The notes: generated by a model from the letters alone, not told the origin. DNA of 64,000 nucleotides from a virus (IMGVR_UViG_3300011116_000416:21615-85614), one strand, 5' to 3'. Shown: positions 24,548 through 57,300, numbered from the stretch's first letter. A program made the numbers and translations.

Positions 24548-25899
24548 TATGTCACATCCACAACTGCTTTAAATTCCATAAAGTTTGCAGTGTTTTCTTT
24601 TTTAATGATTGGTTGTAAATCGGTTGTTGCTATTTTTGTATATCCTGTTAAACCATAAACGTTACTAAAAGATGATATATTTTCAATTCTCATTGCATCT
24701 AAGGCTACATAGAAGTCATCTGGAGTAGCACCTCCAGAGCCAGTGACATAAACATAAATATGTACAACAGTTACTTCAGACCATTTAAATGAGGCACTTT
24801 TAACTAATTCACTTAATTTTTTAGTTGCAACAACATATCTATTATTTGGATAATCTTGTTGCGTTGTTGATGTTCCATTATCTAAATTCACTACAAAATT
24901 TGCATAGTTTGTTGCAGATTCATCACTTAGGAATCTTACTAATATTTTTACATTGCTTACTGCATCTGTGTTTCCAATTCCACCTTTATTTAACACCGAA
25001 AATGCTAGCTTTAATTCATCATCAGTTGAATTTGAATCAAAATCAAATCCGTTTGGTGTATCTAGATGTAAGTGAGAGCCAGAACTTATTGTAAGATTGC
25101 TTCCGCTAGCTGCTAAAACTGATGTATCTCCTCTTATGATGACTACGTTATTTAGAAATCTCGGTCTTTCATATCTATTAATTCTTGTAGGATATAGTGT
25201 GCTATCAAACAATCCATTATCTGCGTTTGTAAAAAATGCGTCAGAGGTTTCTGTTATGTCATTATTTGCATTTGTTATTGCTCCAAATTTTTCTGGAATA
25301 GAAGTTATGGCTGTTCCTGTATCATATTGCCAAGCTTCCGTTGTGTTAAATAGCATAATGTTTATACTGTCTGAGCCAGTTGCAGTTGGATTTACAAGAG
25401 CTGGATAAAGACCAACCTCTGTAATTTCATATCTATTTAAACTAGGAAGTTCTGCAGTAAAAATTATTTTAGATATTCCATCTTCTGTTACATAAGATTT
25501 TGAAATTATTGGAACCCTTTCCATTTCAAATAGCATAGATGTTTTATTTGCAAAGCTTACTACCGCAGTTCCTGTTGGGCTTACTGCAGTAGAACTAATG
25601 GTTGCCGAAGAAGCAACCGTATAAACTAGTGATGTGTTGCTAGTTCCAGCAATTAATTGATATGTTCCATTAAGTCTAGTATCTACGTTATAAACACTAA
25701 TATAATCACCAACAGCAAGTCCATGTGCAACTGAAGTTGTTAAAGTTGCGGTATTTGATAATAATGCCTTATTGTTAATTGTAAATGTTTGTGTAGAGAC
25801 TGGTTTTGTTCCACAGCCAATAGCCAAATAAGATGCGAACTCTTGTGCCTGACCAACAAGATATTTGCCAATTATCGATTTTCCTGTATTTGTAATCAT
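24547..25899 (-). CDS. Minor tail protein with FCCH-like insert, 450 aa
   Basis: The N-terminus (MITNTGKSIIGKYLVGQAQ) is typical of phage baseplate/tail-tip proteins. Residues about 39-115 hold one copy of the dispersed FCCH-like domain (AHGLAVGDYISVYNVDTRLN). A C-terminal beta region (about 230-420) looks like a carbohydrate-binding module. Start supported by TAGGAT and a promoter at 25915-25920. It lies downstream of the tail hub and is likely a tail-tip component. Confidence 0.65.
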   Translation of the reverse strand: MITNTGKSIIGKYLVGQAQEFASYLAIGCGTKPVSTQTFTINNKALLSNTATLTTSVAHGLAVGDYISVYNVDTRLNGTYQLIAGTSNTSLVYTVASSATISSTAVSPTGTAVVSFANKTSMLFEMERVPIISKSYVTEDGISKIIFTAELPSLNRYEITEVGLYPALVNPTATGSDSINIMLFNTTEAWQYDTGTAITSIPEKFGAITNANNDITETSDAFFTNADNGLFDSTLYPTRINRYERPRFLNNVVIIRGDTSVLAASGSNLTISSGSHLHLDTPNGFDFDSNSTDDELKLAFSVLNKGGIGNTDAVSNVKILVRFLSDESATNYANFVVNLDNGTSTTQQDYPNNRYVVATKKLSELVKSASFKWSEVTVVHIYVYVTGSGGATPDDFYVALDAMRIENISSFSNVYGLTGYTKIATTDLQPIIKKENTANFMEFKAVVDVT

Positions 25900-25914
25900 A
25901 TTATCCTAGAATCT

Positions 25915-25923
25915 ATTGTAGCA
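25915..25923 (-). promoter_or_regulatory. Extended -10 promoter for minor tail gene
   Basis: TGC-TACAAT on the minus strand (25915-25920). A short leader with AGGAT precedes the ATG at 25899. Confidence 0.5.
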
Positions 25924-25945
25924 GATTTAGCCCATACTTTCTTTA

Positions 25946-26479: not shown

Positions 26480-26480
26480 A

Positions 26481-29400
26481 TTACACTACCTCACTTACAT
26501 ATACTAGCATACTTAATCCAGTTTCGTTTTTGCTATGTTCAATTCCATATACAAGAAATTTTGAATTTGGGGATACTTCAAATACATCAGAGCCTGGATT
26601 TGTATAGTTAATTTGAACGATATCTCCCAGTTGCAAAATTGGTAAACCAAAAACATCTATACCCAATACTTGTCTTGGTTTTCTTAATTTATTAATTGTC
26701 CAATCCATAAGTCTATATGCTGTATCGTAGTTTTGAATATATGGTGAATCGATTGTAAACGATTTTGTTCCATATGTTAATCTACTATTTTTAATATCAG
26801 TATATTGCTTTTTGTAAGAGTTTGGGTCTTCTCCAAAATTAAGACCATCATTATAAGATAGGTCGCTTCTCTTAAGGTAGTATTCATCTACCGTTAAATC
26901 GTGAGTTGATTCTTGTGTAAACGCTATTCCTAGAATTCTTAAATAATTTCCAGATGTTGCGTCTAATGAAAGTGCAGAATCAGTAGCGTTAAATACTAAA
27001 AATTCTGCACCATATGGATTATCATTATATCCAGAAACAACGTATCCTCTTTCACCAGTAAATGTTGGTGCAATTTTAGAAAATAGTGCTGGATAAGCTT
27101 TTTCAAATCTAACATTAAAATAAGCCATCTCTCTCATAATTGTTCCAAATTCTTCATAGTATATTGTTGGTGCTGGTTTTCCAGTTGTTCTAATTCCGCT
27201 CAAAGCTGTTGATTGCAAAATTCCACTAAGAGCATATCTATTTGTAGAAATAGTTGCTGAAGATTCTCTAAAAATTGAATTAACTAATTTTATATCCTCT
27301 GTATTGTTGGCGGTTGTGTCTACTGCAAATACGTTTTCAAACATTACTTTTGAGGAACCACGAATAAACAAGCCAACATTTTGAACAAGAGGCAATGGAG
27401 AAGTATCTTCTACTGTGTCGATAAGACTATTATTTAGGTATATATAAAATTTTCTGCGATTACCTACTGTGAGCTCTTGTTCTGCTTGAACCGATAGGTC
27501 GTATACCGTTGGGTTTTGTTCTGCAGATACCCTACCCTGACCCACAAACTGACCATCATCTGTAATGATTGACCTTAAAGAACTAGATAACAATATTGGT
27601 TTTAAGACACCGTTAGTTTTTTGTAACTTTGTGCTTGAAAGTGCAACATAATTGCCATTCTCTGTGGATGGTGATTGTCCAGTTAGTCTGACATAATCTC
27701 CAGCGGTAACTCCAGAAATTGCAGAAGATGCAGTAAAAATATCTCCGCTTAAACTTCCAGCAATATTATCTTTTGTTATTTCATAAGCCACTAGCTTATA
27801 AAATAAAACATTATAAATATCACTAGCAGATGTTATTCCTGTAAGAATTGGATTGCTGTCAGTTAATGCTATGATTTCATAGTAATATCCCTCTCCAGCT
27901 GCATTTGTGTAAAATGACATACCGCCAGACGAACCACCCAAAACCGTAGTTTTGTTTTTAGAATTTGTTAGAGAATATATGTCTATGCTTCCATTTGGAA
28001 ATTGTTTCGATGATGAAGATTCTTTATTTCCAATAATTCTCATTCTGGTTCCAAACGTATCGTATTTTGAGCCAGAAGATGTTAAATTTTTAGTGATTCT
28101 ATTAATTGATGCAGATGCAGAGCTATCTAAAACAAAGCCAGCTCCAGAGAATACCAAACTTGATGATTGCAACATATCTGTAGATGTGTCATATTTTTGT
28201 GTAGACATATTGTATTTTAGTGTAGATAAATAATTTTTAATTGCATAAGTTGCTGTGCCTAATTTTGTTAATGCAGACACATTTTCTGTTATGTTGGTAG
28301 ATTTTTCTTCATTAAACACGTTTGTATAGACACCAGTATTTTCGTTTTTCTTTACATTAAATAAAAACTGGTAGTCGTTCAGGGTTGATTTTATTGTAGA
28401 TGTTTGCCAATCTGTAATATTTGAACTTATTAAATGGTTGGTTATTGTTGTTCCAAATTGACCTCTACCGTGTTTTGCAACATCTCCTTCTTTTAACTTT
28501 CCATCTCTAGTCCATCTAGGTTCTGCATAAATTCTAACTTTTCCAGTCGGATACATTCTTCCACCTGCAGGTAAACTAGCAAAATATTTTTGATAATCTT
28601 CTGTACTTGTAATAAATACTTCATTGTTTAAATAAGCTGTTCCAGATGTGGTTATTGCTCCTGTTGTTGTAGTTTTAAACTTAAATTGTGTTAAATTTGG
28701 AACTGCTGTAATTGTTTGAACTCCACGATATCCAATAGGAACCACATCCATGATTACTATTTCATCCCCAACTTGCAAGTTATGATTTGCGGAAGCAGTA
28801 AAAGTAACTTCTCCAGCTACTGAAACTATGCTAGAGTTATTTGCTGGTGTAATTGATATTGGAGAATTTGGAGATGTTACGTTATATTGTATTGCATCAT
28901 ATTTTATAATTTCACCATTTGCATAGAAATATCCGTTATATCTACTCAGCCAGTAAACGCCATCCCCAAATTCAATGATATTGTTTACAATTTGTCCCTT
29001 ATTGTTTACCTGTGGTACTGAACTCCTTAATACTGCGTTTAACGGTACCGCACTTAAAACATAATTTGATTGAGTGGATAGCTCTTCATTAATGCTTTTG
29101 GTAGTTTGTTCTCCAGAAACTTCCCAAAGTAAAACTGGCTTATATCTCCAAATCCTATCTTTATCTAATTTACTTGCTTGTGTTAATGAACTTATAGATT
29201 TTTGAATATATCTATTTTTATAAATAACCTTACCATCATTAAAGATGTCTTTATTTTCACCTTTTAAATTTATTATATTTGCTTTAATTCCATTTGATAA
29301 ATCATCGCCATATAAAACTATGTTTGTGTCCCTAACATTGCTTGTTTCTGGAACCAAAAATTGTTTGCTCATACAAACAAAATTATTGTCCTCGTCAAAA

Positions 29401-31241
29401 AACATTGCTGTTTGCGTAGAAGTAGCTAGGTCATTTAAAACTTCCATTATTGTTTTGTCTGGTGGTACAAAAAAGTATGGAATAACTGGGTCATATTCCC
29501 CAAAAGCCCTTTTAAAAATATAATTTGTAAATCCAATATTATCTAGCAAAGTTGCTATAATTTTGCTTAGAGTTGCATTATTTAACATAATTCTAGGTGC
29601 TAAAATTGATTCGAAATAAAATGACAAATCTCTTAAATTAAAGGTTACTTCTCTATTTGCATTATCGTATTGAGGATATCCGTCTGTATACATTGTTTTA
29701 ACTGGTAGCATATAGTCTTTAAAACTTGACAAAACTGGAACAGATATCACAGACTCGTAAAACTTAAGTTGTAAATTTTTACTTGCAAAGGTAAATTGTA
29801 ATTCATCTCCTGCATACTTATTTAATATACTAAATTTATTATTTTGATTAAATGCCTGGCTAAAATCAAATAGACTCATTTGTCCAGTTGAAGCTAAAAG
29901 CTGCCCTACTGGAAGGCTTGTCAAGCCGATGTCTGAAGCCATTTTCTTTATTGAATACGACACTACAATATCTGAAATGTCTGCTGTTAATCTTGGAGAA
30001 AGCTCAATCAGGTCAAAGGTTGTATTGACGTTCTTCATTTTTGTTACAGAAAGTCTTAATCCATCGACATAATCGAACTGTCTATATACCCTTGTAGAGT
30101 TAGACATGTAATAATCTACTTTATCTGTTCTATCTTCGGTATCTGTTTTTGGAACTATAAAATCTGTTACATATTGCTGTGTGTTTGTAACAGTTTGTGT
30201 ATTCTTATACCATCCATAGTTAGGAACAACCTGCTCCCAAGAATCTCCATCCCAAATATGTAAAGTTCCAATGCTTTGGTTTGTTGCCTTTAATAAATAT
30301 GCAAAGCCCTTTTCTTTGTCGGATAGATTTGGCAACACAAAATTAGAAGAAACATTATCAATTAATTTAAAATTATTAGTGTATGCAACTGGAATATTTG
30401 TAATTCCATAAGATAATTCTAGATATCCATCTGTTGGAAAATCATCGCCTCCGTTATAAACTGTTGTCCAGGTTGTACCAACCAACTTTTCTAGCTTCCA
30501 TTCAACTGGGGTTGATTTATAATTTGTTGCAGAGCCAGACCAAAATGGGTCATTCGTTCCATCTGGCTTAAGGTCTAGTTTAATATCTCCGACATTTGTT
30601 TGAACCTTAATTACGACTCTATTTGCTGGAATTGAATTTTTATATTTAACAAATGGTGCAACATCTTCAATAAGAAATTCACCAGACTTATTGTAAGAAA
30701 GACCAACAATTTCGGTATCACTTGGTTTAGATAATGATGTTATTCTTCTATAGGAAGACCAGTATTTAAATATATCATCTTTTCCAGCAACATAATATCT
30801 TGGTCTAGAATAAGTTGTTTCATTTGTTGGTGGTATTTTGTTATTAGCATCAAATCTTAACTTATTAATTCCAGAACGTGGTCTAAATCTAGTAAAACAT
30901 GACTCTAGTGACATGAGTAATTTTTGCTGGTCATTTTGCTTTAAGAAAATGGCTGGGGTACTACCATCTTCTTCATAGCCACCATCTATCACTGTATCAT
31001 AGTCTGTTCCACCATAATATCTTGGACTTGTTGTGTTTTCATCCTCTAAAACAAAAGTTGTTGGTAATGTGGCATATGTTGAAACATATCTAGAACTAGC
31101 TGTATCATGTCTATAAAAATAATTACCAATAACATCCAGATTTTCAAATATGTTTAGATTCCATTCGGCAATTATTTTACTTTTTAATTCTACAACACTA
31201 GATGTTTGCAGATGATTTGTTAAATCACTATCTGTATACAT
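26481..31241 (-). CDS. Tail hub / tail-associated lectin-like protein, 1586 aa
   Basis: I start at the ATG at 31241 (GAGGAGG SD and TAATG overlap with the Dit gene), 11 codons inside the longest frame. Residues about 430-800 resemble tail hub domains. About 794-870 is an FCCH-like insert (NHNLQVGDEIVIMDVVPIGY). Residues about 1000-1340 look like a concanavalin-type jelly roll (FYIYLNNSLIDTVEDTSPLP, VGLFIRGSSKVMFENVFAVD). The C-terminus (QLGDIVQINYTNPG, FLVYGIEHSKNETGLSM) is typical of siphovirus Tal/hub proteins. It probably closes the tail tube and contacts the cell surface. Confidence 0.75.
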   Translation of the reverse strand: MYTDSDLTNHLQTSSVVELKSKIIAEWNLNIFENLDVIGNYFYRHDTASSRYVSTYATLPTTFVLEDENTTSPRYYGGTDYDTVIDGGYEEDGSTPAIFLKQNDQQKLLMSLESCFTRFRPRSGINKLRFDANNKIPPTNETTYSRPRYYVAGKDDIFKYWSSYRRITSLSKPSDTEIVGLSYNKSGEFLIEDVAPFVKYKNSIPANRVVIKVQTNVGDIKLDLKPDGTNDPFWSGSATNYKSTPVEWKLEKLVGTTWTTVYNGGDDFPTDGYLELSYGITNIPVAYTNNFKLIDNVSSNFVLPNLSDKEKGFAYLLKATNQSIGTLHIWDGDSWEQVVPNYGWYKNTQTVTNTQQYVTDFIVPKTDTEDRTDKVDYYMSNSTRVYRQFDYVDGLRLSVTKMKNVNTTFDLIELSPRLTADISDIVVSYSIKKMASDIGLTSLPVGQLLASTGQMSLFDFSQAFNQNNKFSILNKYAGDELQFTFASKNLQLKFYESVISVPVLSSFKDYMLPVKTMYTDGYPQYDNANREVTFNLRDLSFYFESILAPRIMLNNATLSKIIATLLDNIGFTNYIFKRAFGEYDPVIPYFFVPPDKTIMEVLNDLATSTQTAMFFDEDNNFVCMSKQFLVPETSNVRDTNIVLYGDDLSNGIKANIINLKGENKDIFNDGKVIYKNRYIQKSISSLTQASKLDKDRIWRYKPVLLWEVSGEQTTKSINEELSTQSNYVLSAVPLNAVLRSSVPQVNNKGQIVNNIIEFGDGVYWLSRYNGYFYANGEIIKYDAIQYNVTSPNSPISITPANNSSIVSVAGEVTFTASANHNLQVGDEIVIMDVVPIGYRGVQTITAVPNLTQFKFKTTTTGAITTSGTAYLNNEVFITSTEDYQKYFASLPAGGRMYPTGKVRIYAEPRWTRDGKLKEGDVAKHGRGQFGTTITNHLISSNITDWQTSTIKSTLNDYQFLFNVKKNENTGVYTNVFNEEKSTNITENVSALTKLGTATYAIKNYLSTLKYNMSTQKYDTSTDMLQSSSLVFSGAGFVLDSSASASINRITKNLTSSGSKYDTFGTRMRIIGNKESSSSKQFPNGSIDIYSLTNSKNKTTVLGGSSGGMSFYTNAAGEGYYYEIIALTDSNPILTGITSASDIYNVLFYKLVAYEITKDNIAGSLSGDIFTASSAISGVTAGDYVRLTGQSPSTENGNYVALSSTKLQKTNGVLKPILLSSSLRSIITDDGQFVGQGRVSAEQNPTVYDLSVQAEQELTVGNRRKFYIYLNNSLIDTVEDTSPLPLVQNVGLFIRGSSKVMFENVFAVDTTANNTEDIKLVNSIFRESSATISTNRYALSGILQSTALSGIRTTGKPAPTIYYEEFGTIMREMAYFNVRFEKAYPALFSKIAPTFTGERGYVVSGYNDNPYGAEFLVFNATDSALSLDATSGNYLRILGIAFTQESTHDLTVDEYYLKRSDLSYNDGLNFGEDPNSYKKQYTDIKNSRLTYGTKSFTIDSPYIQNYDTAYRLMDWTINKLRKPRQVLGIDVFGLPILQLGDIVQINYTNPGSDVFEVSPNSKFLVYGIEHSKNETGLSMLVYVSEVV

Positions 31242-31876
31242 TATGCCTCCTCTAGTGTCATTTGTATATTCCACATATCGTAATTTGTTCTACCACGTTT
31301 TTCTACGGACCATGTGAAATTTGTTATATACATTTCCAATCTTTCATTATATTGTGTTAGTTTTGTAAAAGATGATGCATCTTTATCTCCACTAACACCA
31401 GCAACAGGAAATTCTGCATAATTGTCATATGCTAAAAAGACCCAAAAGGTTCCATAATGATTGTTGTACCAATCTAAAAGTTCTACTCCACCTGCTCCAC
31501 CATCAACTGTATATTCATCTACCGTGCTAGTTGGTGCACCTGTTGTTGTATTAAAATTAGGGTCTGAGCTATATGCTCTAGATGGTAGCATTTGCCAGCT
31601 AACAGAGAGCTGTCTTTTATCGGCTACCCAATAAGAACGCATACGACCGTTAACCATACGCTGACGATTTTCAATTCTTTGAACGTTAAAATCTAAAGCA
31701 CTTCTGTTATGGTCAGAAAGTATTAAAAAATCTCCATTATTATTTGAGGCGTTTCCTATTTCAAGACCATCTGGAACATAAATACCATTATCAATAGAGC
31801 CAGAACTTTCTGAAAACAGAATAGCTTGAGGTCTTGGGTAGGACTTTCTACCATTGATATATCCTGAAGTAGCCAT
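31241..31876 (-). CDS. Distal tail protein (Dit)-like, 211 aa
   Basis: Located between the tape measure and the hub, the usual Dit position. It has a beta-rich pattern with LEIGNASNNNGDFLILSDHN, QLSVSWQMLPS and FWVFLAYDNYAEFPVAGV, and a C-terminal FTWSVEKRGRTNYDMWNIQM typical of tail proteins of this type. It should form the ring joining tail tube and hub. The call rests on synteny and length. Confidence 0.7.
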   Translation of the reverse strand: MATSGYINGRKSYPRPQAILFSESSGSIDNGIYVPDGLEIGNASNNNGDFLILSDHNRSALDFNVQRIENRQRMVNGRMRSYWVADKRQLSVSWQMLPSRAYSSDPNFNTTTGAPTSTVDEYTVDGGAGGVELLDWYNNHYGTFWVFLAYDNYAEFPVAGVSGDKDASSFTKLTQYNERLEMYITNFTWSVEKRGRTNYDMWNIQMTLEEA

Positions 31877-39592: not shown

Positions 39593-40300
39593 TTAGTAGG
39601 TGCGGTCGATAATCTTTCCGTAAGCACCAGAGTCATCTGGTAGAAGGCGGAACTCTACATCGAACATGCTTGCAGCATCACGCTTTGCAGAAACAGTTAC
39701 AGAGCTAATCGAGATAACTCGATATGCAATGTATACACGCTCTGTCTGGTCTGTTGTACCAGCACCAGAAGCAAACGCTGCCTGTGGTCCAGGACCAACA
39801 GCAACCAAGCTTCTTTCTACTGGGTAATCACCCAAGTCACCAGAAGTAAGGTCGATGTATCTACCCTGAGAAGTTGAACCTTCTGTCCACGATGGAACAG
39901 TTACAGTTACAACAGTTCCGCTTGCAGTTGCACCAGTTGTGTAGCTGTTTACGGAACCCTTCTGACCGATAGAAATTAGAAGATTTTCTAATGTTGCCTC
40001 GGCAAAAGATGTTCTCAGAGTTACTGTCATTCCAGACTTGAAAAGCTTTGCTACGTCTAGAAGCTGGTCCACCATTACATCACCAAATGTTGGGTTAAAT
40101 GTAATGTCAACACCATTGCTTGTGTAGCCAACGTTAGTTACGTTAGCTGAGTTTGTACAGATATCCTTGTAAGAAACACCGTTAGTAAAAGCTGGCTGGT
40201 TAGTAGTTGATGTACTAGTCCAAGTTTTATCTGGTTTCGACAAGAATAGAGCAGCAGCACCAACGATGATGTTGGCGTTTGTACCTCTTGAATATGCCAT
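39593..40300 (-). CDS. Major tail tube protein, 235 aa
   Basis: A beta-rich protein of the right size and position (before the tail chaperones). Typical segments are VGYTSNGVDITFNPTFGDVM, KSGMTVTLRTSFAEATLENL and the C-terminal AASMFDVEFRLLPDDSGAYG. It forms the tail tube by stacking hexamers. It has a strong promoter (40353-40358), an AGAGGTG SD and a terminator right after it, as expected of an abundant virion protein. Confidence 0.82.
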   Translation of the reverse strand: MAYSRGTNANIIVGAAALFLSKPDKTWTSTSTTNQPAFTNGVSYKDICTNSANVTNVGYTSNGVDITFNPTFGDVMVDQLLDVAKLFKSGMTVTLRTSFAEATLENLLISIGQKGSVNSYTTGATASGTVVTVTVPSWTEGSTSQGRYIDLTSGDLGDYPVERSLVAVGPGPQAAFASGAGTTDQTERVYIAYRVISISSVTVSAKRDAASMFDVEFRLLPDDSGAYGKIIDRTY

Positions 40301-42007: not shown

Positions 42008-43149
42008 TATAGTACTGATGGCTTGAAGTTGCTGCCCTTATAGTTGTTAAGAATCTTATCAACGAGCATGTTGCCAGTTCCTTCCAAGAATTGTGGAGCA
42101 AATTTAATGTTGAATTGGTCAGTGCTATATTGCGTGACGAAACGCTTATAATAGTCGTTTGTACCACATTTTAGCTCTTCTACAAGAATTGTTGCTGCTC
42201 TCTCTACATCTGGTGGAATAGTCTTGTGTCCAGCATCAAGAACAAAGGTGTAGTCGTAGCCTTCTGGGAATGCAACATAGCCACTTCTAGAACCAGAATA
42301 TAGACCCAAGTCTCCAGTAGCAGCTGGTATCCTTAATGGCGTTGATTCACTCCTATTATAAATTCCATTTGCCTCTACCCTCGCAATAGCAGAGCCATCT
42401 AGCAAAGTTTTGTATTCATATTCCCAAATTCTAGTGACAGTACCAGCGGTTGTAATATTGCCTGTTGTAGAGTTTGCAAAACTAAAAGATGTCGTTGTTG
42501 GAACAGCAGTAACTACAAATGTTCCACGATATCCAGTAGGAACAACTGTTGCAATAACTACTACATCACCGACTTCAAAACCATGTGCTGAAGCGGTAGT
42601 TAGGGTTACTGTTCCAGACGATGTGGTTGGGGTTTGAGTATTTAGAGTAATGGCTACATCTTCGCCATTATAAACAAGCACATTGTTTTCGTATACTTTT
42701 AAAACTTTATTAACAGGGTGCCAAATAGGAAAGTAGTCCCCACCCTGACCTTCTTTTACAATAACTAGTTTGTGATTATAAAAATCTGCGTTTCCTAGAT
42801 ATTGGTCCATAATTGACCTTGCAATAATTTCCCACTTTTTATATTCGGCAATGTCTTCTGCTGTAGTTGCAAGGTCATTTGGATTTACATATGGTCTATA
42901 AACCGTCAAGTTGTCATCGATAACTATTTCACCAGACGAATCAGTTACCTTAAATAAAAAGTCTCTGTCATACTGAACTTTTGATTTTGGCAAAACATAG
43001 GAAATCTTTTTGTTAGCATCTGAGGTTAATGTTGTGGTTTCAAATGAGTGGTCCACCAAATCCTCTACATAAACAGAGTATGCTGTATTTGCAGCTGGCA
43101 CTGTCCATTGAGTTGTAATAGGATATGGTGGAACCCTCAAAACTTCCAT
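42007..43149 (-). CDS. Head-tail adaptor with FCCH-like insert, 380 aa
   Basis: The N- and C-terminal parts (about 80-160 and 250-380) look like a head-tail adaptor: DIAEYKKWEIIARSIMDQYL, PPDVERAATILVEELKCG. Between them, residues about 165-244 hold a complete FCCH-like domain (SAHGFEVGDVVVIATVVPTG, then VPTTTSFSFANSTTG). An insert in a neck protein is unusual and suggests surface decoration of the connector. The FCCH-like copy here is the closest to the eukaryotic E1 pattern by eye. Confidence 0.65.
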   Translation of the reverse strand: MEVLRVPPYPITTQWTVPAANTAYSVYVEDLVDHSFETTTLTSDANKKISYVLPKSKVQYDRDFLFKVTDSSGEIVIDDNLTVYRPYVNPNDLATTAEDIAEYKKWEIIARSIMDQYLGNADFYNHKLVIVKEGQGGDYFPIWHPVNKVLKVYENNVLVYNGEDVAITLNTQTPTTSSGTVTLTTASAHGFEVGDVVVIATVVPTGYRGTFVVTAVPTTTSFSFANSTTGNITTAGTVTRIWEYEYKTLLDGSAIARVEANGIYNRSESTPLRIPAATGDLGLYSGSRSGYVAFPEGYDYTFVLDAGHKTIPPDVERAATILVEELKCGTNDYYKRFVTQYSTDQFNIKFAPQFLEGTGNMLVDKILNNYKGSNFKPSVL

Positions 43150-45291: not shown

Positions 45292-46053
45292 GTTATCATT
45301 CTCCTTTTTGATAATCTTAGAAGTATTAATGCCTTTAGCACTATCAACTAAGAACTTAATCATGTCGAGTTTTTCATCATCTGATTTCTCAACAAAACCT
45401 ATATTTTGCATAGGCAAACCATTTATTGGACTATTTACAGCCTCTTCTTCAGAAATCGTAACAAGACCAGACTCTTTGTCCCAGAATACATTCTCAATTT
45501 GTGTTTCTGCTACTTGTCCTGTTACTTTATCTACCCCATCAACTTTCTCTACGGAAAGGATATTTGCAAATTGATTTGCTGGGCTATCTACTAGAGATAA
45601 TTCTGTTAGGTCATAATCCTTGATAATTCTAACGGTTGAGTCTGATTTTTCGTCATAGGCATCGTCCCATTTATTCATCTTACCGCCAATAGAAAATCCA
45701 GTAAGTGTTCCATCTAAAACTTTTTCCCAAGTATCTGGTGCACCCTTAGAAACGTATGCAGATACATAAACACCCTGATAAAACTTTTTGCTTTCTGGGT
45801 CAAAGTACTTGTCTTCCTTAAAAGATACCATCTTACCAACTGCTTTAGGTTGGTGCATTTCACGGATGTTTCCACGAAATTTAGCAAAGGCTTTCTTACT
45901 AGCTTCTGGGGTAACGATATCATTTTGTCTATCAACATTGTCCAAGGTAGCAAAGCCTGATACAATACGCTTTTCAGAATCTACCTTGCTGAATGGCATG
46001 GAGATACGAACCTTATCTCCGTCCATATCCCAATTTGCTTTAGAAATGTCCAT
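44809..46053 (-). CDS. Prohead protease fused to scaffold, 414 aa
   Basis: Residues 1-175 are a XkdF/S78-type serine protease: a His in REMHQPKAVGKMV (about 67) and a Ser in LTGFSIGGKM (about 137) with an acidic residue in YDLTELSLVDSPA. Residues about 255-414 are an acidic Ala/Glu/Val-rich and coiled-coil scaffold region (AVTELSTTVTTAFSDVAAVI, ESLKNEIAELKKSL). There is no separate scaffold gene. An in-frame ATG at 45291 with its own SD could make the scaffold alone. The promoter gives a leaderless start at 46053. Confidence 0.85.
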   Translation of the reverse strand: MDISKANWDMDGDKVRISMPFSKVDSEKRIVSGFATLDNVDRQNDIVTPEASKKAFAKFRGNIREMHQPKAVGKMVSFKEDKYFDPESKKFYQGVYVSAYVSKGAPDTWEKVLDGTLTGFSIGGKMNKWDDAYDEKSDSTVRIIKDYDLTELSLVDSPANQFANILSVEKVDGVDKVTGQVAETQIENVFWDKESGLVTISEEEAVNSPINGLPMQNIGFVEKSDDEKLDMIKFLVDSAKGINTSKIIKKENDNMAENENVESVDVAPEAEVVDAPATEEVVEEVAEVAEPAHVEEVVEEVHGSDEEIAKAVTELSTTVTTAFSDVAAVIKSLADANESLKNEIAELKKSLGYVSAVVADAESDFNNLGKRLDAVEADTAFRKSGDLGEVVQEPVLVEKSVWGGSFLTTSDLLK

Positions 46054-48129: not shown

Positions 48130-51100
48130 TTATAGGACATCAAGTGTAATTTCGGAGAATTCTACGTTTAAATAACCTAAATATTCGTATCCACCAAGAC
48201 GTAATCCTTGATATTCGTAGTTTGAATCAACTATTGACTTATTTGTACCAGTTAATGTCTTATAAATATCCTTAATATTATTACTATATATCTCAAAATA
48301 ATTTGGAATTGATGAATATTCCCAGGTTCCTAGTGCAATTCCAGCAGTGGTAATTGCACCAGATGGAGCTGTAAGGGATGTAGCCAAATACTTAAAAGAT
48401 GTGGTTGAAGGAATTGCTGTCACATAAGAGTCTGTAGTTGTGTTGTATTCCGTTGGAACTAAATTTCTAACAGCAACTTTTTCTGATAAAAACAGTCTAT
48501 GACTATTGGTTGTTGTAAGTGTAATTTCTTTTACTGATATTGTCGGGGTCTGTGTTGGAATTGGAATTGCCCAGTTATTGCCGCCAATCTCAGACCATAA
48601 AAGCTGTGTTGCTTTTTGCTGTAATTCTATTGGACTTGCTTTGTAGTAAGAAAGATTATTAATTAATAGATTTGACGTTAATTTCAGAACTCCAGACATT
48701 CCAGAAACACTAATTGGTTCTTTAAAGACAATTCCAATCATGTTCCATTCATTAAGACTGATTACTGGATTAGCAACTTTTTTACCATTAATATAATATA
48801 CTGGCTTTATTTCTGAAGATGTTGAAATTCTACCCTTAGTTTTTGCTGTATTGCTAGCAATAATTGAAAATGATATTGAGCCACCATTGCCTTCTAATTT
48901 TAATATTTGCATAGATGATGTTGGAAATTCTTTAAAATCTGCTAAAGCTGCAAACTGTAACGAGGCTATTTTTGCATCCGAATCCAAAGATTCGTTTGTG
49001 TTTACATAAATGCCCCTATCTGTTCCAGAACTATAGGTACCAGCAATTTTTATACCAGAATATTTTGTTAAATATAAGTATGGCATACTTTCTTTAAATA
49101 TTAAATATGGATTTTGGCTTTTATAATTAAATGTTGTTCCGCTTTGAGTATATGGATATATGTTAACAGAATGCTTTGTTCCCAACGCATTTGCTGCATT
49201 TGCATTAAAAGATTGTGCGGCTAGTTGTAGATATCTAAAATTGGTTGGTTTAGTATTAATTCCTGGTATGTTTGATTCAACGTGTATAACCATTGCAAGA
49301 GTGGTTAGGTCCATATCTGTTGGTGGATAAATTATCATATTATTAACAACCTCGTACTTAGTTGTTGCACTAAAAGTTGTTGCGTTTACAACATTATTAG
49401 AATTTGGAGAAACTGTAGTAGTAAATGTTGAGGCTGCTGCATTTGCACCAGAAATAATTGTTTGAAAGCTAACATATGTCTTTACTAGTGATGCCGATGT
49501 GTCGTAGTTTGAGCCAGAATACACCTTTGGCTCTGGGTAGTCAAAGTTAAACTGAATTAAATCTAATGCATAAACGTCATTTCCAGATGCGTCAGAGACT
49601 GTTTTTGCTAACTTGCTAAGTGGAACATAATTTTCCCAGTATGAATTAACAGCAATATCTGGAATTATCTTGCTAAATAGGTTATTTGAAATAAGCGTAT
49701 AGGTTGCTGTTCTTGGAAGAAGACTTGCTACGGATGTAGATAAATTAGATAGATATCCGTTTGCATCAAATAGACTTGTGATGTCTGCAGCATTTCTTGT
49801 AGAGCATAGTCCTACTTTATAAATATTTCCACTAAATGTTTCTGATAGACTTCTGTCTCCACCAATATAGATATCAAGATTTGACTTGTTCTTTAAAAAT
49901 GTTGCTAGATTTCCATTTTTAGAAATTAATTTTGCTACATCTATTCCAACAGCAAATGTTGTATTTGTAGTTATTGTTTGTGCTGGACTAACTAAAAGCT
50001 CTTCCGATAAATTTTGATATTTAAAAAGGTATGAAACTGTTGTTCCTGTTAAAGATATTTTTAAATAATCACCATTTATATTATTTTCTATTTTGATTAG
50101 GATTTGCTCTGAAACCGAATTTTCTATGGCTTTAAAAACACCATACAAGCATGATGTTAAATTTTTGGTTGGGTCATAATTATCTAAAACAATATACCCA
50201 GTATTTGTTGTCCATGACCTACCAGAGCCAGAAACTACGCTAGATGGCTTAAGATTCATAAATGAATTAGACTCTCCAGAAGCCACATTTGTTTCATATA
50301 GGTCAGCTAGCCACAATGCGTTTGAGTAAAGTGAGTTTTGAACTATTGGTTCATTATATGTTGTTGGTGACAAAGTCTCTTTTGCAAGTACCGAAAAATT
50401 ATCTATGCTAGATGCTTGCTCCCATTTTGCATCTGTTCTTGGATAATTATAGTTATTTGCATAATTTGAAAAAGGATAGTCAATAAGTACTGTCTGACCG
50501 TTTGTTGTTGATGCATATTCCTCTGGAATTTTTACACCTTGTGCATACACAAATCTACGTTTTTGTAATGTTTCAGAGACTTTGTATGGATAAATTGCCA
50601 CTGAATCAATATCTACCGATGGTACTGATGTAGCATATGCATAGAAGCCTAGCCAATCTTGGCTTTTAGAGGAGCCATCTAGCTTTGCTGGTAAAGAAAG
50701 AGATGCATTATCTATCGACATTGAAATAACCGTATCTCCATCTAGACAAAGATTTGCAAATCCATCACCTATCTGTATTTGATACAATGTTGGTTTAAAT
50801 AGTTCAGAAGCATAATATGATTCAATATAGTCTCCTACCTTTAAAGTGATGTATTCATTTGTTACATACAATCCATCTGTAGATGCTAATGGTCCGAATA
50901 TGCGTTTTGGTGTTGTTGTATTTGCATTTATCCTGGCTAAAAACTCTATTGTTAATTCTTTATATCTTCCAATCTCATTTAAAAATCCAAATCCAGGAAA
51001 TATAAATGATGGTTGATTTGCAGTAGCATTTGGATATATGGTCATAATATTTAATGAACCATAAGACATTGGAATACCACAATTTTTAGCATATAGCTCA

Positions 51101-52008
51101 TTTCCACTACCAATATAATAGGCACTATAAATTTCATCACCGTATGACTTTGTTTCAATGCCGCTTGTTAGCGTAGTAGATATCGTTGCTGGAAGTGAAA
51201 AAAGTGACTGACCAAATGATTCACCGTTAAATTTTTCTGAATCTTGACCCAGCGTTAATCCATTAATATAATAAATCGGACTTGTATCAAGGTAACTAAT
51301 GTTGAAAATTAGTTTTGCTCCAGATGCAGAATCTTCTGATGTATATGATATTGGAATCCAAGAATTAAATGAATAATTAATTGGATTTATGTCTATAGTT
51401 CCACTAAAAAATTTTGCAGCTATTACTGTACCACCAGTGCCAGAACCAAAATCTGGCACAGATGTATATATTCTAAAAACTGTTGCAGTTAAACCTGTTG
51501 CTGAGACGGTGCCAGACACGTCATAAATTGATTCGCCTCCAGCACTTGTGCCTGAAACTGTAACATATTCTCCAGCAACTAAATTATGATTTCCAGTACA
51601 AGTATATTGCAAATATGTGGATGTTCTTGTAATAGTAGATATCGTTGCTATTTTTCCAGAACCATATCCAATATTTATAAATGCCCTGTTTGATGTTTTA
51701 AGATAAAAAGATACTGTAAAACCAGCACTCGTTGAACTAAAGGTAAATGGCGATACTAGGTATAGATTTGCATTTCCACCATAGGTTGGTGTAGCCGTTC
51801 CTGTAATCTGAGTTACATAACTTGATGAAAATGGTGCGGTTGAATCTGATGTCGATGCTACCGTGGCATTTGTTGCTGTCCATGTTGATAAATCTCTATT
51901 TGTCCCAGATATTAGAGATACATATTCTGCTTCACTATCTAATGACCATAAGGCTAGCGGATGCTCGCTTAGAAGTTTATCTGCATAAAGATTAGATGGA
52001 GTGGACAT
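48130..52008 (-). CDS. Large LamG/FCCH-containing virion protein, 1292 aa
   Basis: The N-terminus SNLYADKLLSEHPLALWSLD is typical of phage fibre proteins with laminin-G/concanavalin folds. Two FCCH-like inserts lie at about residues 119-198 and 1148-1229. Several jelly-roll-like segments (LTIEFLARINANTTTPKRIF, IKVGDYIESYYASELF-type, FNGESFGQSLFSLPATI) suggest repeated sugar-binding domains. It sits between the ribonucleotide reductase and the portal, away from the other fibres. It may be a head fibre or side tail fibre. Leaderless promoter and terminator bound it on the right. Confidence 0.65.
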   Translation of the reverse strand: MSTPSNLYADKLLSEHPLALWSLDSEAEYVSLISGTNRDLSTWTATNATVASTSDSTAPFSSSYVTQITGTATPTYGGNANLYLVSPFTFSSTSAGFTVSFYLKTSNRAFINIGYGSGKIATISTITRTSTYLQYTCTGNHNLVAGEYVTVSGTSAGGESIYDVSGTVSATGLTATVFRIYTSVPDFGSGTGGTVIAAKFFSGTIDINPINYSFNSWIPISYTSEDSASGAKLIFNISYLDTSPIYYINGLTLGQDSEKFNGESFGQSLFSLPATISTTLTSGIETKSYGDEIYSAYYIGSGNELYAKNCGIPMSYGSLNIMTIYPNATANQPSFIFPGFGFLNEIGRYKELTIEFLARINANTTTPKRIFGPLASTDGLYVTNEYITLKVGDYIESYYASELFKPTLYQIQIGDGFANLCLDGDTVISMSIDNASLSLPAKLDGSSKSQDWLGFYAYATSVPSVDIDSVAIYPYKVSETLQKRRFVYAQGVKIPEEYASTTNGQTVLIDYPFSNYANNYNYPRTDAKWEQASSIDNFSVLAKETLSPTTYNEPIVQNSLYSNALWLADLYETNVASGESNSFMNLKPSSVVSGSGRSWTTNTGYIVLDNYDPTKNLTSCLYGVFKAIENSVSEQILIKIENNINGDYLKISLTGTTVSYLFKYQNLSEELLVSPAQTITTNTTFAVGIDVAKLISKNGNLATFLKNKSNLDIYIGGDRSLSETFSGNIYKVGLCSTRNAADITSLFDANGYLSNLSTSVASLLPRTATYTLISNNLFSKIIPDIAVNSYWENYVPLSKLAKTVSDASGNDVYALDLIQFNFDYPEPKVYSGSNYDTSASLVKTYVSFQTIISGANAAASTFTTTVSPNSNNVVNATTFSATTKYEVVNNMIIYPPTDMDLTTLAMVIHVESNIPGINTKPTNFRYLQLAAQSFNANAANALGTKHSVNIYPYTQSGTTFNYKSQNPYLIFKESMPYLYLTKYSGIKIAGTYSSGTDRGIYVNTNESLDSDAKIASLQFAALADFKEFPTSSMQILKLEGNGGSISFSIIASNTAKTKGRISTSSEIKPVYYINGKKVANPVISLNEWNMIGIVFKEPISVSGMSGVLKLTSNLLINNLSYYKASPIELQQKATQLLWSEIGGNNWAIPIPTQTPTISVKEITLTTTNSHRLFLSEKVAVRNLVPTEYNTTTDSYVTAIPSTTSFKYLATSLTAPSGAITTAGIALGTWEYSSIPNYFEIYSNNIKDIYKTLTGTNKSIVDSNYEYQGLRLGGYEYLGYLNVEFSEITLDVL

Positions 52009-52069: not shown

Positions 52070-54109
52070 TTAATTTTTATCTGGAATTTTGATTTCACAG
52101 TAATCGGTGGTACAATAGGCTTCGCCTTGTGCTTCCAGATTATCTACTCCATCATAAATAGCAGAGAAGTCAATCTTTGCTAGTCTTCCAATGTAGTAGT
52201 CATATTCTTCTTCTGTGATTTCTGTATATGGTTGCTGTGGATAGACATCGTTACCCATTGATAGGAATGATACCGCCTTTAGCTGACCTTCATACATGTT
52301 CAAAACAGAAGTGATATGCTTTGTTTCCTTTTCCTTGTCAAATGACAGGGTTACAGAAACTCCGTTGTCTGACCAATACTTCTGAGCAGTAGCAGCAAGT
52401 GCTGTCTTCTCAAATAGAGTAACATCCTTTTCTGCTCTCTTGTGTCCAGATGCTATTGGGAAATACACTACGGAGGTATTTGCTGATACTAGGTCTGCCT
52501 CAATCTTATACCCTGCCGCTCTAAACAGATGTAGCATTGGGTCTTGGTTGCTAAAGCGGATTGCTCTTAAATAGAACTTTCCACCTGGACCCCAGTGAAC
52601 ACCAGGGGTAGCACCAGAAAGGATTGACACAGAACCAGATGGTTTGATGGTTGTAACACGGATTGATTCACGCACACATAGCCACTCGGAATATTTGCGG
52701 TCATAGTAGCGAATCTTGTTATATCCTTCATCCATCCAATCACGAACTGTAGGTAGTCCATGGTCATCAGCAAATGATGCGATACCAGTTAGAGATGTTC
52801 CAATTCTTCGGTTTCTCTGCATGATACCGTTTGTTTGTTGCCAGTGAGTAGGAAGTAGTGTAACTGTCTTTCCATACAGATAGGCAAACTTTAACGTACG
52901 CAAGAAGTCTTCCTTAGATTCGTGACGATTTAGGTGAACTTCTACAAGCGTACAAAGCTCGTATGATTCTAGTGGCTGTTCTGCACATGGGTTAAATCCC
53001 ATAACACGATAGTCTTTACCATCTGCAGGGTCTGCCAAACGACCATAGTTGCGAGCAACATCTAGCCAGATAAATCCTGGTTCTCCATTATCTGCAATGC
53101 GGTCAACATACTTTGAGTAATCCATTCCTACTGTTGCAGAAACAGAGTTATTTGACATCCAAGCCCATCCAGGATTCTCAGGGTCATATGAGTTACGCTC
53201 TGGGAATACTTCTGGATTCTTTAGATTTAAGAAGTCATCGTCACTCTCTGCTCCTAAAGCTAGGGTAGCAGAACGTCTAACGTTACCAGATACTACACAA
53301 GTGCCAATTAGGTTTACTAGGTCTACGATGGCACGAGCATCAAGTACCTCGCCAATACGCTGTCCTAGAACATGGCTAATCTTTTCGTGTAGTTTGATTA
53401 GTGGTCCAGGACCTGATGCAATACCGCCAAATCCTTTGATTGGGGCACCTTCTGGTCTAATTAGCGAATAGTCAAACTTCTGGATATTCTGACCTTGACG
53501 AAGATATGAGTTGATTAGCAATCTAGTTGCTTCTACCCAGCCTTCACGAGTGTCTGGTATTTCGTAGATAACTTCTGGCTCTGTTGGTCCATAGATTACG
53601 AAGTTCTTGTCTTTTCCAAGTGTATCAAAGCCAACTCCAATACCAAGCATAAGAGCATCCATAATCCAAGCAAATAGGGCACCTGGGTCATTCTTGTCTA
53701 GGTCTTTAGTAGATACCATGGCACAATTCTGCAACGCTGCAGAGTTACGTTTTTCCATGGTTAGCTGTGTTCCAAATGTCCACATACCACGACCTGGTGG
53801 TGTCCATTTTAGGTTAAACATTCTATCGAATGCCTCCTGTGCTGATTTCTGTGCCTTATAGTCATTCCAAGGGAGACGATTCTCCTTTGCATGGTTTTTC
53901 TGGACAGAATACATACCTTCAATAACTCTGCGTACTACTTCGTACCAGCGTTCTTTAGTTCCGTCATCTTTGACTCGTGAGTAGGTGCGAACAAAGGTAA
54001 TTTCACCTAATGCGTTGCCACCTGCATCCACGAATCCAAAGGGAGATTCCAGGGTTTTGTACTTTTCGACAAAATCTGCTGGGAGTGTAAATGAGAAAAA
54101 ATCTGACAT
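52070..54109 (-). CDS. Class II (B12-dependent) ribonucleotide reductase, 679 aa
   Basis: Adenosylcobalamin-dependent ribonucleoside-triphosphate reductase by motif: NPCAEQPLESYELC (about residues 376-389) carries the active-site loop, NCAMVST and GTCVVSGNVRRSA contain further conserved cysteines, and the C-terminal CTTDYC pair (about 668-673) is the reducible tail. Length fits the monomeric NrdJ type. It makes dNTPs for phage replication without oxygen dependence but requires host B12. The phage thioredoxin may recycle it. It has its own promoter and terminator inside the structural region, so it is likely an independently regulated insertion. Confidence 0.93.
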   Translation of the reverse strand: MSDFFSFTLPADFVEKYKTLESPFGFVDAGGNALGEITFVRTYSRVKDDGTKERWYEVVRRVIEGMYSVQKNHAKENRLPWNDYKAQKSAQEAFDRMFNLKWTPPGRGMWTFGTQLTMEKRNSAALQNCAMVSTKDLDKNDPGALFAWIMDALMLGIGVGFDTLGKDKNFVIYGPTEPEVIYEIPDTREGWVEATRLLINSYLRQGQNIQKFDYSLIRPEGAPIKGFGGIASGPGPLIKLHEKISHVLGQRIGEVLDARAIVDLVNLIGTCVVSGNVRRSATLALGAESDDDFLNLKNPEVFPERNSYDPENPGWAWMSNNSVSATVGMDYSKYVDRIADNGEPGFIWLDVARNYGRLADPADGKDYRVMGFNPCAEQPLESYELCTLVEVHLNRHESKEDFLRTLKFAYLYGKTVTLLPTHWQQTNGIMQRNRRIGTSLTGIASFADDHGLPTVRDWMDEGYNKIRYYDRKYSEWLCVRESIRVTTIKPSGSVSILSGATPGVHWGPGGKFYLRAIRFSNQDPMLHLFRAAGYKIEADLVSANTSVVYFPIASGHKRAEKDVTLFEKTALAATAQKYWSDNGVSVTLSFDKEKETKHITSVLNMYEGQLKAVSFLSMGNDVYPQQPYTEITEEEYDYYIGRLAKIDFSAIYDGVDNLEAQGEAYCTTDYCEIKIPDKN

Positions 54110-54143: not shown

Positions 54144-54152
54144 AGTATACCA
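54144..54152 (-). promoter_or_regulatory. Extended -10 promoter for ribonucleotide reductase
   Basis: TGG-TATACT on the minus strand (TATACT at 54144-54149). The leader contains AAGGTGG before the ATG at 54109. Confidence 0.65.
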
Positions 54153-54174
54153 CAGTTTTAGAAAATGTCAAACA

Positions 54175-54303
54175 CTACTTATTTTTAATGTTTTCTACTT
54201 CTTGAATCAATAATAAAATTGCTTGATATGCCTTTTCTAGTGCATCGGGATTTGTAATACCATCACTTTTCCACTGCTCAATGAGGTCTTTTATTTCATT
54301 CAT
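54175..54303 (-). CDS. Small helical protein, 42 aa
   Basis: A 42-codon frame whose ATG overlaps the stop of the large fibre gene (TAATG). It is acidic, amphipathic and helical (IKDLIEQWKSDGITNPDALE, then AILLLIQEVENIKNK). Such small proteins next to fibre genes are sometimes fibre assembly factors; here that is only inferred from position. Confidence 0.6.
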   Translation of the reverse strand: MNEIKDLIEQWKSDGITNPDALEKAYQAILLLIQEVENIKNK

Positions 54304-57300
54304 TATGCCCACGCTCCTACAGTAGTTACTGTTCCGTTACCAATTGGGGTAAGTTTAAAAATCAGTCCGCTTTGCATAGTTACACCATTGTCACCTACAA
54401 CTGAAGAAGTAAGAGAAGGATATACCTTGGCACTACCAGTACCTGTAACTCTAATGGTTCCCCTAACTCTGTATGTAGAGAATCTGTTACCAGTGCTAAT
54501 TGCAGCAGCAACAACAACACCAGTAGCAGTTACAGACCTAACAGTGCTCATAGTTACTGCCCCAGTAAAACCTGTTGTATTTGAACCATAATCAATAGTT
54601 TGAGTATAAGCAACAGTTGGAGAGCCGCTTACAGTGCTAGAAGTAAAGTTGTGAGTTAACGTCATTGTAGTTGCTGAAATAAATGACATTTGAACTGACG
54701 CTAATAATTCAAATTCATAGGTTGTTCCAGCAGCCAAAGTTATACCAGTAGTAGTACCACCCAAAATAGATTGAGCAGCAGCTGAACCAGAGAAATCAAG
54801 TGAATAGGTGGAATTAGATACATAAATATAGTTTTGAGTTTTTAATGCTCTACCTGGTGTTGTATTGGCTGTTTGATAGAATACCGTGCCATCATAGTCC
54901 ATTGTTCCAGATGTTGCTGTTGGTGTTCCAGCATTTGTTTGAAAAGTTATGGGGTAAACAGAAGTATTTCCAGCAACAAGAGTTAGGTTACTTGTTAATG
55001 TTCCGCCAGTAAATGACCCTCCACCACCAACTAAGTTAGTTCCAGCAGATGTTGCACCAGTAGAAATATCAATATAGAATCCACGGTTAGTTCCACCAGT
55101 TTCAAAAAAGCGTAATCTGTTTTGATAAACGTCAATAGAAACACCAGTTGTTAAAGTTGTATTTGTAACTGATTTTGCAAGGTCAATCTGACCTCCTTCA
55201 TCTCCAGAAGATTGATTAGATTTTAGTATTGCAGAGGTAGATATGTCTCCAGATGCTGTAAATGCACCAGATGGAGAAACTGACGCAACAGTTGTTGGTG
55301 TATTAGTCTGCCATTCTTGAAGATTGGCTGTCTGAGATGCGGCACCACGAATAACGGCACCTATTGATGAAGCTCCACCAACAGTATCTGTATTAACTGC
55401 AAAAGTTGTTCCTGTTATAAGTGAACCAATACCAATTTGTCCACCTGGACGAACTCTAGCTGTTTCGGTGGCATCACTTAATTGCCAAGATTGTAGGTTT
55501 GCTGACTGACTTGCCGCTCCACGAACAAGAACACCAATAGTTGCAGCTGCTCCAGAAACAACTCCAAGTTGTGCCAATGAACTTGTAGTTCCAATCGAAA
55601 GTGTTCCAGAACCTGTAATACGCATACGTTCTGAGCGACCAGTTGTTCCATCTGTTGCTGTTTCAAATAGTATTGCTGAACCTAATCCAGTAGTAGTAAA
55701 GTTTTCGTTTGCAATCATTCTTAGGGCAGCTGAGTTTCCACCAAAAGCCGATGCGTTATTGTATCCTTGAGCAAAAAGACCAAATAGTAAATCGTTTGCC
55801 TGGACCTGAGTTGGAGATGCTATTGTACCTCTTGCACGTCTTCCTGTAATGCCTGGACCAGTTCCAGCGGTATCGCTAACTGTAGTATCTATATAGTTGC
55901 TACCTGTGCTAGATGATGTTCTTATTTGACCTGTAGCGGCTTGAGTTGTTCCAGCAATTTCAGTTCCAACAGTTAATCCGCCAGTCGCTGAAACAGATGC
56001 AACGGTGGTTGGTGTACTCGTCTGCCACTCAGTAAGATTCGCAGTATGTCCAGCTGTACCACGAATAGCAAGACCTACCTGAGTTGTTCCATATGCGGTT
56101 GATGAAATCAGGGCATTTGAAATAACGGATGAACCACCTACAACTAAAAATCCGTTTTGGTCTACTTTTAGAAGTGTGCTAGGTGTGTTGTTTTGTATTT
56201 GCAATAAGTCAACGCTTTGACCAGAAGCACCACGAATAGTAACACCAACTGCACCAGAACCAGAGTTCATAACTCTAAGAGTTCCACCTAATGATGATAG
56301 AGCTGTTCCACCCACACCAAGAATTGGCAATTGTGTATTTCCAACCGATGATATACTTCCTAAAATAGCACCAGCACTTGACTGTAGCTCCATAATATTT
56401 GCTGCTTGAGATGCCGCTGCTCTAACAACTAATGGAGTATTGTTAGCAGAAAGAGCTGTAATTCCAACTTGAGAATTTTGCGTAACAGTTCCAGCAACAG
56501 TAATTGCACCAGGATTCGAACCAATACCTATAACAAGTGTTGAACCAGTTGTTCCTCCTCTAGCAACCCATGTACCATTGTATCCAGCAGGTGTTATACC
56601 AGCAATAACAACTGTTTGACCAACAGATATACCGTGAGCTGTTGCTGTTGTAATAGAAATATCTGTAGTTCCAGTTGGTGTCTGTGTGTTGATTGCAACT
56701 GTTGTAGTTCCCTGTATTGGAGTTGTTCCGCCTGTAAAAAATTGACCTTGTGCATTTACTCCAGCAAGAACAGTAGAAGCATTTTCCCAAGTTTGAAGAT
56801 TTGCACGGTAGTTAGCAACAGAGTGTCTTGCTCTTATTGCGTTTACTGTTACATCTTGAGCTGATGAAGTAATAGACCATATGGCAGAAATTGCTGGAGC
56901 AACAATATCACCAGCTGCTGTAATGTATGTTTGTGTGCTACCACCAGAGTTAATATATCTAAATACGTCTGTCGCATTTCCAGATGTTCCAGCACCTTTA
57001 ATAACTAATCCAACAGCTCCTGGGTGTGGTTGTTTAAAAAATCCTGCTGGTTCAACTGCAATGGTTCCAGTTGCTGTAAGAGCACCACCATTTGTAAATG
57101 GAGTAGTTGTTCCAGGAGCAACAATTGTAACTGTCCAAGCACCGCTAGAGCCACCAACCGCTGTAGTAATCCAAGAGCCATTGTATTGTGCTTGGCTTGC
57201 ACCAGAAACAATAATCTTTTGACCAGCTGCAAATGGGTTATATGTCTGAACTGTGCTTACTGTAAAAGTTGCTGTGCTGCTTGTTAGAAATGGGTTTGTA

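What the first reader, a model, noticed from the sequence alone, without database searches (positions are those of the whole stretch)
25555..57290. An E1-FCCH-like beta domain occurs seven times in five different virion proteins
An approximately 75-residue module with core (A/N)HGxxVGDxVxIxxVxPxGYxGT...VTAVPxxTxFxF...TTGxITTxGT is found in five proteins. The copies are in the tail-tip protein (25555-25785), tail hub (about 28630-28860), head-tail adaptor (about 42418-42655), 1292-aa virion protein (about 48320-48565 and 51414-51650) and large fibre (about 56476-56702 and 57050-57290). Copies in three proteins share a TQTPT lead-in, so this looks like shuffling of one module. By eye the pattern matches the first-catalytic-cysteine-half domain of ubiquitin-activating E1 (HGFE.GD.V...V......NG and later TFS). 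A swapping surface module in neck, hub and fibres at once would be unusual.
Basis: partly seen in the sequence, partly recalled or inferred. Interest (0 to 1): 0.75.

Follow-up and report, generated by a model that had tools for sequence, protein, structure and literature searches.

The report
Shuffled beta-barrel module on phage virions
A small, independently folding beta-barrel of about 75 residues has been pasted into five unrelated virus-particle proteins of this phage, relatives carry it at other sites or lack it cleanly, and it looks like a second 'sticker' domain used by phages beside the well-known immunoglobulin-like one.

Summary
Profiles built only from sequences outside the window find the module in four other window proteins (E 7e-17 to 1.3e-5; best decoy 0.049). 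Iteration adds the N-terminal copy in the 1292-aa protein (1.6e-13). The seventh copy (fibre, 57072-57287) is weak but above background (HH E 1.9e-5, background best 0.018), and an eighth is possible in the hub. AlphaFold2 gives a confident all-beta barrel (pLDDT 95.7). Its best solved matches are ubiquitin E1 (Uba1/Uba6) chains, then the beta-barrel of phage endosialidases and the P22 coat I-domain. So the FCCH-like fold is supported, but no window copy reaches the Pfam E1_FCCH cut-off. Shuffling is shown directly. Orthologues of the adaptor-position protein, hub and 1292-aa protein lack the module with clean junctions; others carry it at other sites (5 in hub, 4 in the 1292-aa protein, at least 6 in the tip family). 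The window's fibre copy is 76% identical to an extra copy inserted in a relative's 1292-aa protein. The module is not unusual: it occurs in up to 23 host-protein groups and in cultured phages. Most likely it is a mobile surface-decoration domain, working like phage Ig-like domains. Glycan binding is inferred, not shown.

The parts
42424..42645 (-). Module copy 1, in the 380-aa protein at the head-tail adaptor position (ORF 42007-43149)
   Evidence: HMM E 3.6e-34; AF2 model pLDDT 95.7; absent with clean junctions in orthologues L045, L046, L047, L049, L052, L053
28635..28841 (-). Module copy 2, in the 1597-aa tail hub / minor tail protein (ORF 26481-31274)
   Evidence: E 7e-17 with a profile from outside the window; most hub orthologues lack it with a gap at residues ~801-885
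48322..48561 (-). Module copy 3, C-terminal copy in the 1292-aa virion protein (ORF 48130-52008)
   Evidence: E 8.7e-13; absent in orthologues L021, L039, L029/L068
51421..51642 (-). Module copy 4, N-terminal copy in the 1292-aa virion protein
   Evidence: E 1.6e-13 iterated profile; absent in L021, L039, L029/L068, present in L038, L031
56478..56693 (-). Module copy 5, in the 1266-aa fibre (ORF 54303-58103)
   Evidence: E 1.6e-7; 76% identical to an extra copy in the L031 1292-type protein; sister in tree, SH-aLRT 99
25564..25800 (-). Module copy 6, in the 450-aa tail-tip-position protein (ORF 24547-25899)
   Evidence: E 1.3e-5, 1.8e-12 iterated; groups with modules of an unrelated 571-aa protein of other phages
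57072..57287 (-). Module copy 7, probable degenerate copy in the fibre
   Evidence: hhalign prob 78, E 1.9e-5 vs background best 0.018; not significant by HMMER (E 0.39)
27648..27725 (-). Possible degenerate eighth copy in the hub
   Evidence: hhalign prob 39, E 3e-4
39593..40300 (-). Major-tail-protein-position ORF with an Ig domain (classical decoration domain in the same phage)
   Evidence: phrog_2175 'protein with Ig domain' E 1.2e-31, phrog_885 major tail protein E 3.3e-4; no Pfam match at 0.1

Best explanation
The repeated segment is one homologous, autonomously folding small beta-barrel domain that phages insert into exposed places of many different virion proteins. SHOWN (by sequence and structure prediction): the copies are homologous; the fold is a confident all-beta barrel closest to the ubiquitin E1 FCCH, phage endosialidase barrel and P22 coat I-domain; the domain is gained or lost cleanly at many sites in orthologous proteins and has moved between unrelated proteins. 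INFERRED: it sits on the virion surface at neck, tail tip and fibres and acts as a multivalent, low-affinity sticker for host-surface or extracellular glycans, as proposed for phage Ig-like domains and known for the endosialidase barrel. It would spread by recombination within phage populations because an insert with adjoining termini is tolerated in surface loops.
For: Homology of copies. Clean module-less orthologues: adaptor-position protein, 1292-aa protein, hub. Distinct insertion sites: hub 5, 1292-aa protein 4, tip family at least 6. Cross-protein move: L031 carries an extra 77-aa insert in its 1292-type protein that is 76% identical to the window's fibre copy (tree support 99); DNA is 72% identical inside and 47-49% in the 150-base flanks. 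The five window host proteins fall into five unlinked groups once the module is masked. Fold: pLDDT 95.7; PDB matches E1, endosialidase, P22 I-domain. Sequence match to phi92 endosialidase barrel E 2.4e-4. Surface decoration: in cultured Microbacterium phage A3Wally the module (E 1.1e-19) sits C-terminal to a 220-aa major tail protein core shared with Gordonia and Arthrobacter phages whose proteins are only 217-218 aa, the end where lambda and T5 carry an Ig-like domain (PMC8718954). Glycan binding by analogy: the K1F endosialidase beta-barrel is one of its three polysialic-acid binding sites and a host-discrimination hotspot (PMC12632334).
Against: No ligand, no virion structure and no experiment. 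The most conserved residues (H25, G30, G72, T20) look structural and are partly shared with E1, which binds ubiquitin, so a conserved sugar site is not evident. In P22-like coat proteins the related barrel is described as a structural insertion domain. Surface exposure in this phage is not shown; the adaptor model outside the module is only moderate (pLDDT 76 overall) and its fold search was uninformative.
Confidence: 0.6

Rival explanations
1. Structural reinforcement: the barrel is an assembly or stability domain, like the P22/CUS-3/crAss coat I-domains, that pads interfaces of neck, hub and fibre rather than binding the host.
For: P22 coat I-domain (2m5s) is among the fold matches; crAss001 has a beta-barrel I-domain in its coat protein that contributes to capsid wall thickness and stability and resembles the P22 one (PMC10172136).
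Against: Orthologous adaptor, hub and 1292-aa proteins do without it, and its site wanders, which argues against a conserved interface role.
Confidence: 0.2
2. Tolerated passenger: the domain spreads because it folds on its own and its insertion is nearly neutral, without any selected function for the phage.
For: Patchy presence/absence and many sites.
Against: At the adaptor site it is kept in all of the closest orthologues (79-91% identity) and, diverged, in L042/L043, and copies keep an intact fold signature, which suggests purifying selection on at least that copy. Six strong copies in one 2782-aa fibre also suggest use.
Confidence: 0.12
3. True E1-FCCH homologue with a ubiquitin-like-protein-binding function.
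For: Uba1/Uba6 are top fold hits; PF16190 is the most frequent Pfam touch (14/37); bacterial ORFs over the PF16190 cut-off are hit by the phage profile.
Against: Window copies score 12.9-17.4 bits against a 29.5 cut-off. The endosialidase barrel is at least as close. The adaptor copy's Pfam hit is confined to the HG..GD..V hairpin (profile 2-27 of 70). No E1 or ubiquitin-like partner was looked for.
Confidence: 0.05

Closest known systems
Ig-like domains of tailed-phage virion proteins (Big_2/FN3/I-set; major tail proteins, Hoc)
   Same: Small beta domain, optional, found on different virion proteins, at the outer surface; proposed weak carbohydrate binding (PMC8718954). In A3Wally the present module sits at the C-terminus of the major tail protein, where lambda/T5 have Ig.
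   Different: Different fold: a small barrel, not an Ig sandwich; the module model's 50 best PDB matches are E1, endosialidase and P22 I-domain, not Ig. Often inserted in the middle of proteins, not only at ends.
Endosialidase beta-barrel domain (Pfam PF12195 End_beta_barrel; K1F endoNF 1v0e/3gvj, phi92 4hiz)
   Same: Best sequence match among solved structures (4hiz E 2.4e-4) and fold (TM 0.67-0.75); same HG..VGD.V motif; it is a polysialic-acid binding site in K1F (PMC12632334).
   Different: Only 4 of 37 modules touch PF12195 (best E 1.3e-4); no sialidase domain here; ligand unknown.
Ubiquitin E1 first catalytic cysteine half-domain (Pfam PF16190 E1_FCCH)
   Same: Fold (E1 chains TM mostly 0.62-0.79) and the HG..GD.V ... 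YNG ... SF pattern.
   Different: No window copy tested reaches the gathering score; no E1 context; binds ubiquitin in E1 (PMC8062481).
P22/CUS-3/crAss coat protein I-domain
   Same: Six-stranded beta-barrel inserted in a virion protein (PMC11243222); 2m5s is a fold match (E 0.06, TM 0.64).
   Different: Known from coat proteins, longer (2m5s has 124 residues), no sequence match found; not known as a multi-protein shuffled module.

Membership tests
Pfam E1_FCCH (PF16190) | Score over the curated gathering cut-off (29.5 bits) | tested here: not met
   Window copies 12.9-17.4 bits
Pfam E1_FCCH (PF16190) | Same fold as the FCCH domain of Uba1/Uba6 | tested here: met
   AF2 model pLDDT 95.7; top PDB matches Uba1/Uba6, TM up to 0.79; the aligned E1 range was not printed, but sequence hits fall in E1 residues 179-259
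Pfam E1_FCCH (PF16190) | Lies in a ubiquitin-activating enzyme and contacts ubiquitin | tested here: not met
   Hosts are virion proteins; no E1 catalytic domain in the five proteins by Pfam
Endosialidase beta-barrel (PF12195) | Profile or sequence match | tested here: inconclusive
   4hiz E 2.4e-4; PF12195 touched by 4 of 37 members, best 1.3e-4
Endosialidase beta-barrel (PF12195) | Binds polysialic acid / glycan | not testable with these tools
   Needs binding assay or co-structure
Phage Ig-like decoration domains | Ig sandwich fold | tested here: not met
   No Ig structure among the 50 best PDB matches of the module model
Phage Ig-like decoration domains | Optional, promiscuous across different virion proteins | tested here: met
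Phage Ig-like decoration domains | Exposed on the virion surface | tested here: inconclusive
   Position at the major-tail-protein C-terminus in A3Wally suggests it; no virion structure
P22 coat I-domain | Six-stranded barrel inserted in an HK97 coat protein | tested here: not met
   Fold match only; no copy lies in the head protein (ORF 43621-44796)

The most novel reading that the evidence does not exclude
Tailed phages possess a second, largely unrecognised class of mobile virion decoration domain, a FCCH/endosialidase-type barrel. It is exchanged between neck, tail tube, hub, tip and fibre proteins at domain-level resolution, independently of whole-gene exchange, and E1 FCCH may derive from, or share an ancestor with, this bacterial/phage barrel family.
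Probability: 0.4. Interest if true: 0.75.

Novelty: new variant of a known kind. Interest (0 to 1): 0.6.

Why it matters
Optional surface domains are thought to help virions stick to cells and surfaces before the specific receptor is engaged, yet only Ig-like domains are commonly recognised. This gives a profile for a second, common class that annotation misses, with natural plus/minus pairs and many insertion sites, and it shows which places in neck, hub and tip proteins tolerate a whole extra domain. The link to the E1 FCCH fold bears on the origin of a eukaryotic ubiquitin-system domain. I found no paper on it in the library searched.

Tried and rejected
Direct tblastn of three module sequences against cultured phages gave nothing; a divergent module from L054 did. 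Alignment-based collection scans failed because no stretch was conserved enough. NCBIfam gave no relevant match. Single-sequence PDB search with one fibre module gave only chance hits. The fold search with the whole adaptor-position protein was uninformative because its model is only moderate, so its adaptor role remains positional. I considered a diversity-generating retroelement because the fibre has an MTD N-terminal domain; no reverse transcriptase was found in the record. A chance or low-complexity artefact was rejected by shuffled and reversed decoys and random-segment HH controls.

Full report
WHAT WAS CHECKED. The window is bases 21615-85614 of an 85,614-base IMG/VR virus record, 33-41% GC, with genes mostly on the minus strand. 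Its portal is 46% identical to portals of Streptomyces phages of the Yaboi/Karimac kind and its hub 23-24% identical to theirs, so it is an AT-richer relative from an uncultured, probably actinobacterial, host (inference). Around the finding, PHROGs names a portal (46118-47716), head protease (44809-46053), head protein (43621-44796), an Ig-bearing ORF with weak major-tail similarity (39593-40300) and a tape measure (31876-38430), plus a minor tail protein for the hub.

A profile made only from 40 adaptor-protein orthologues outside the window finds the copies in the hub, 1292-aa protein (C), fibre and tip protein at E 7e-17, 8.7e-13, 1.6e-7 and 1.3e-5; the best of 21 decoy sets is 0.049. After iteration the N copy of the 1292-aa protein reaches 1.6e-13. 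The second fibre copy is weak: HMMER E 0.39, but hhalign probability 78 and E 1.9e-5, against a best of 0.018 for 187 random segments of the same proteins. A similar but fainter signal in the hub (E 3e-4) may be an eighth, decayed copy.

THE FOLD. AlphaFold2 on the adaptor copy with 37 diverse modules gives pLDDT 95.7 and pTM 0.83, all beta with seven strands. In the whole adaptor-position protein the module is again the best-modelled part, mostly above 90. Against the PDB the leading matches are ubiquitin E1 enzymes (6dc6 E 4.3e-3, TM 0.71; Uba6 9qiv TM 0.79, rmsd 2.1), then K1F and phi92 endosialidases (TM 0.67-0.75) and the P22 coat I-domain (TM 0.64). By sequence profile the phi92 endosialidase barrel is the only clearly significant solved relative (E 2.4e-4); E1 FCCH regions follow at 0.15-1.3. 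PF16190 is touched by 14 of 37 modules, below the cut-off wherever a window copy's score was printed. Bacterial ORFs that do pass PF16190 (L236-L239) are also hit by the phage profile at about 1e-6 to 1e-8.

THE MODULE MOVES. Adaptor-position orthologues L045, L046, L047, L049, L052 and L053 run from VYENN.LVY straight to the (W)EYxY...LDxSAI stretch without the 75 residues. In the 1292-aa protein, orthologues about 50% identical have none (L021, L039, L029/L068), two (L038) or three (L031) modules. The hub site is empty in most hub orthologues, while others carry modules at different places; deleting the modules and realigning gives five sites in the hub and four in the 1292-aa protein. The tip family shows at least six sites among members 31-48% identical. 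The extra module in L031's 1292-type protein is 76% identical to the window's fibre copy and at most 50% to any other copy compared, a sister pair with SH-aLRT 99; the DNA is 72% identical inside and under 50% in the flanks. The window's tip copy groups within modules of an unrelated 571-aa protein of other phages. With modules masked, 160 module-bearing ORFs fall into 23 groups, and the window's five proteins into five different ones; some single-member groups may be diverged relatives, so 23 is an upper estimate. One relative (contig of L031/L147) carries twelve copies, six in a 2782-aa fibre.

IT IS WIDESPREAD. In the viral structure library, 34 matches at E 0.001 or better are phage proteins, including S74 fibres, baseplate J-like and wedge proteins, a Gp6-domain protein and a tail sheath. 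Cultured phages carry it: Microbacterium A3Wally major tail protein (E 1.1e-19), Prochlorococcus P-HM1 fibre, a Yersinia phage protein, and arrays in Actinomycetia phage DSL-LC01. The A3Wally case is telling. Its 346-aa major tail protein shares residues 1-220 with Gordonia and Arthrobacter proteins of 217-218 aa, and the module follows, the end where lambda and T5 carry an Ig-like domain (PMC8718954).

HOW IT PROBABLY WORKS. Inference: an autonomous barrel is inserted in exposed loops or ends, presented in many copies on the virion, and gives weak multivalent contact with glycans on cells or in the surroundings. The model rests on the Ig-like precedent (carbohydrate contact proposed, not verified) and on the endosialidase barrel, a polysialic-acid binding site in K1F that tolerates most substitutions yet discriminates hosts (PMC12632334). 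The strongest rival is structural reinforcement as in the P22 and crAss coat I-domains (PMC10172136); wandering sites and module-less orthologues argue against it as the general role. Conserved columns (H25, G30, G72, T20) look structural, so any ligand contact probably uses variable loops.

NOVELTY. Promiscuous decoration domains are a known kind; this fold in that role was not found in the papers searched, and only part of the literature is held. I rate it a new variant of a known kind.

Noticed in passing
52070-54109 (-): A ribonucleotide reductase gene (phrog_367, E 1.2e-140) sits inside the structural gene cluster, between the 1292-aa virion protein and the fibre.
   Followed up: no
59908-60948 and 60945-61901 (-): Two tandem family-2 glycosyltransferases over the Pfam cut-off lie next to the fibre genes; phage glycosyltransferases may decorate Thr-rich virion proteins such as these modules.
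   Followed up: partly
54303-58103 (-): The fibre begins with a major tropism determinant N-terminal domain (PF18454, E 8.7e-12), but no reverse transcriptase is found in the record, so no diversity-generating retroelement is evident.
   Followed up: yes
61910-62548 (-): Short collagen-like Gly-X-Y stretch (GQPGPTGATGPTGPG) near the N-terminus of a 212-aa protein.
   Followed up: no
L226-L228 (ORFs of 717, 807 and 884 aa) and L246:4065-12623: Proteins with arrays of three to about ten modules; the DSL-LC01 2853-aa protein is annotated 'ALK tyrosine kinase receptor', clearly a misannotation of a virion array protein.
   Followed up: partly
L236-L240: Verrucomicrobiota genomes carry ORFs, some several thousand residues long, with PF16190 matches (four over its cut-off); whether they are prophage or cell-surface proteins was not examined.
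   Followed up: partly
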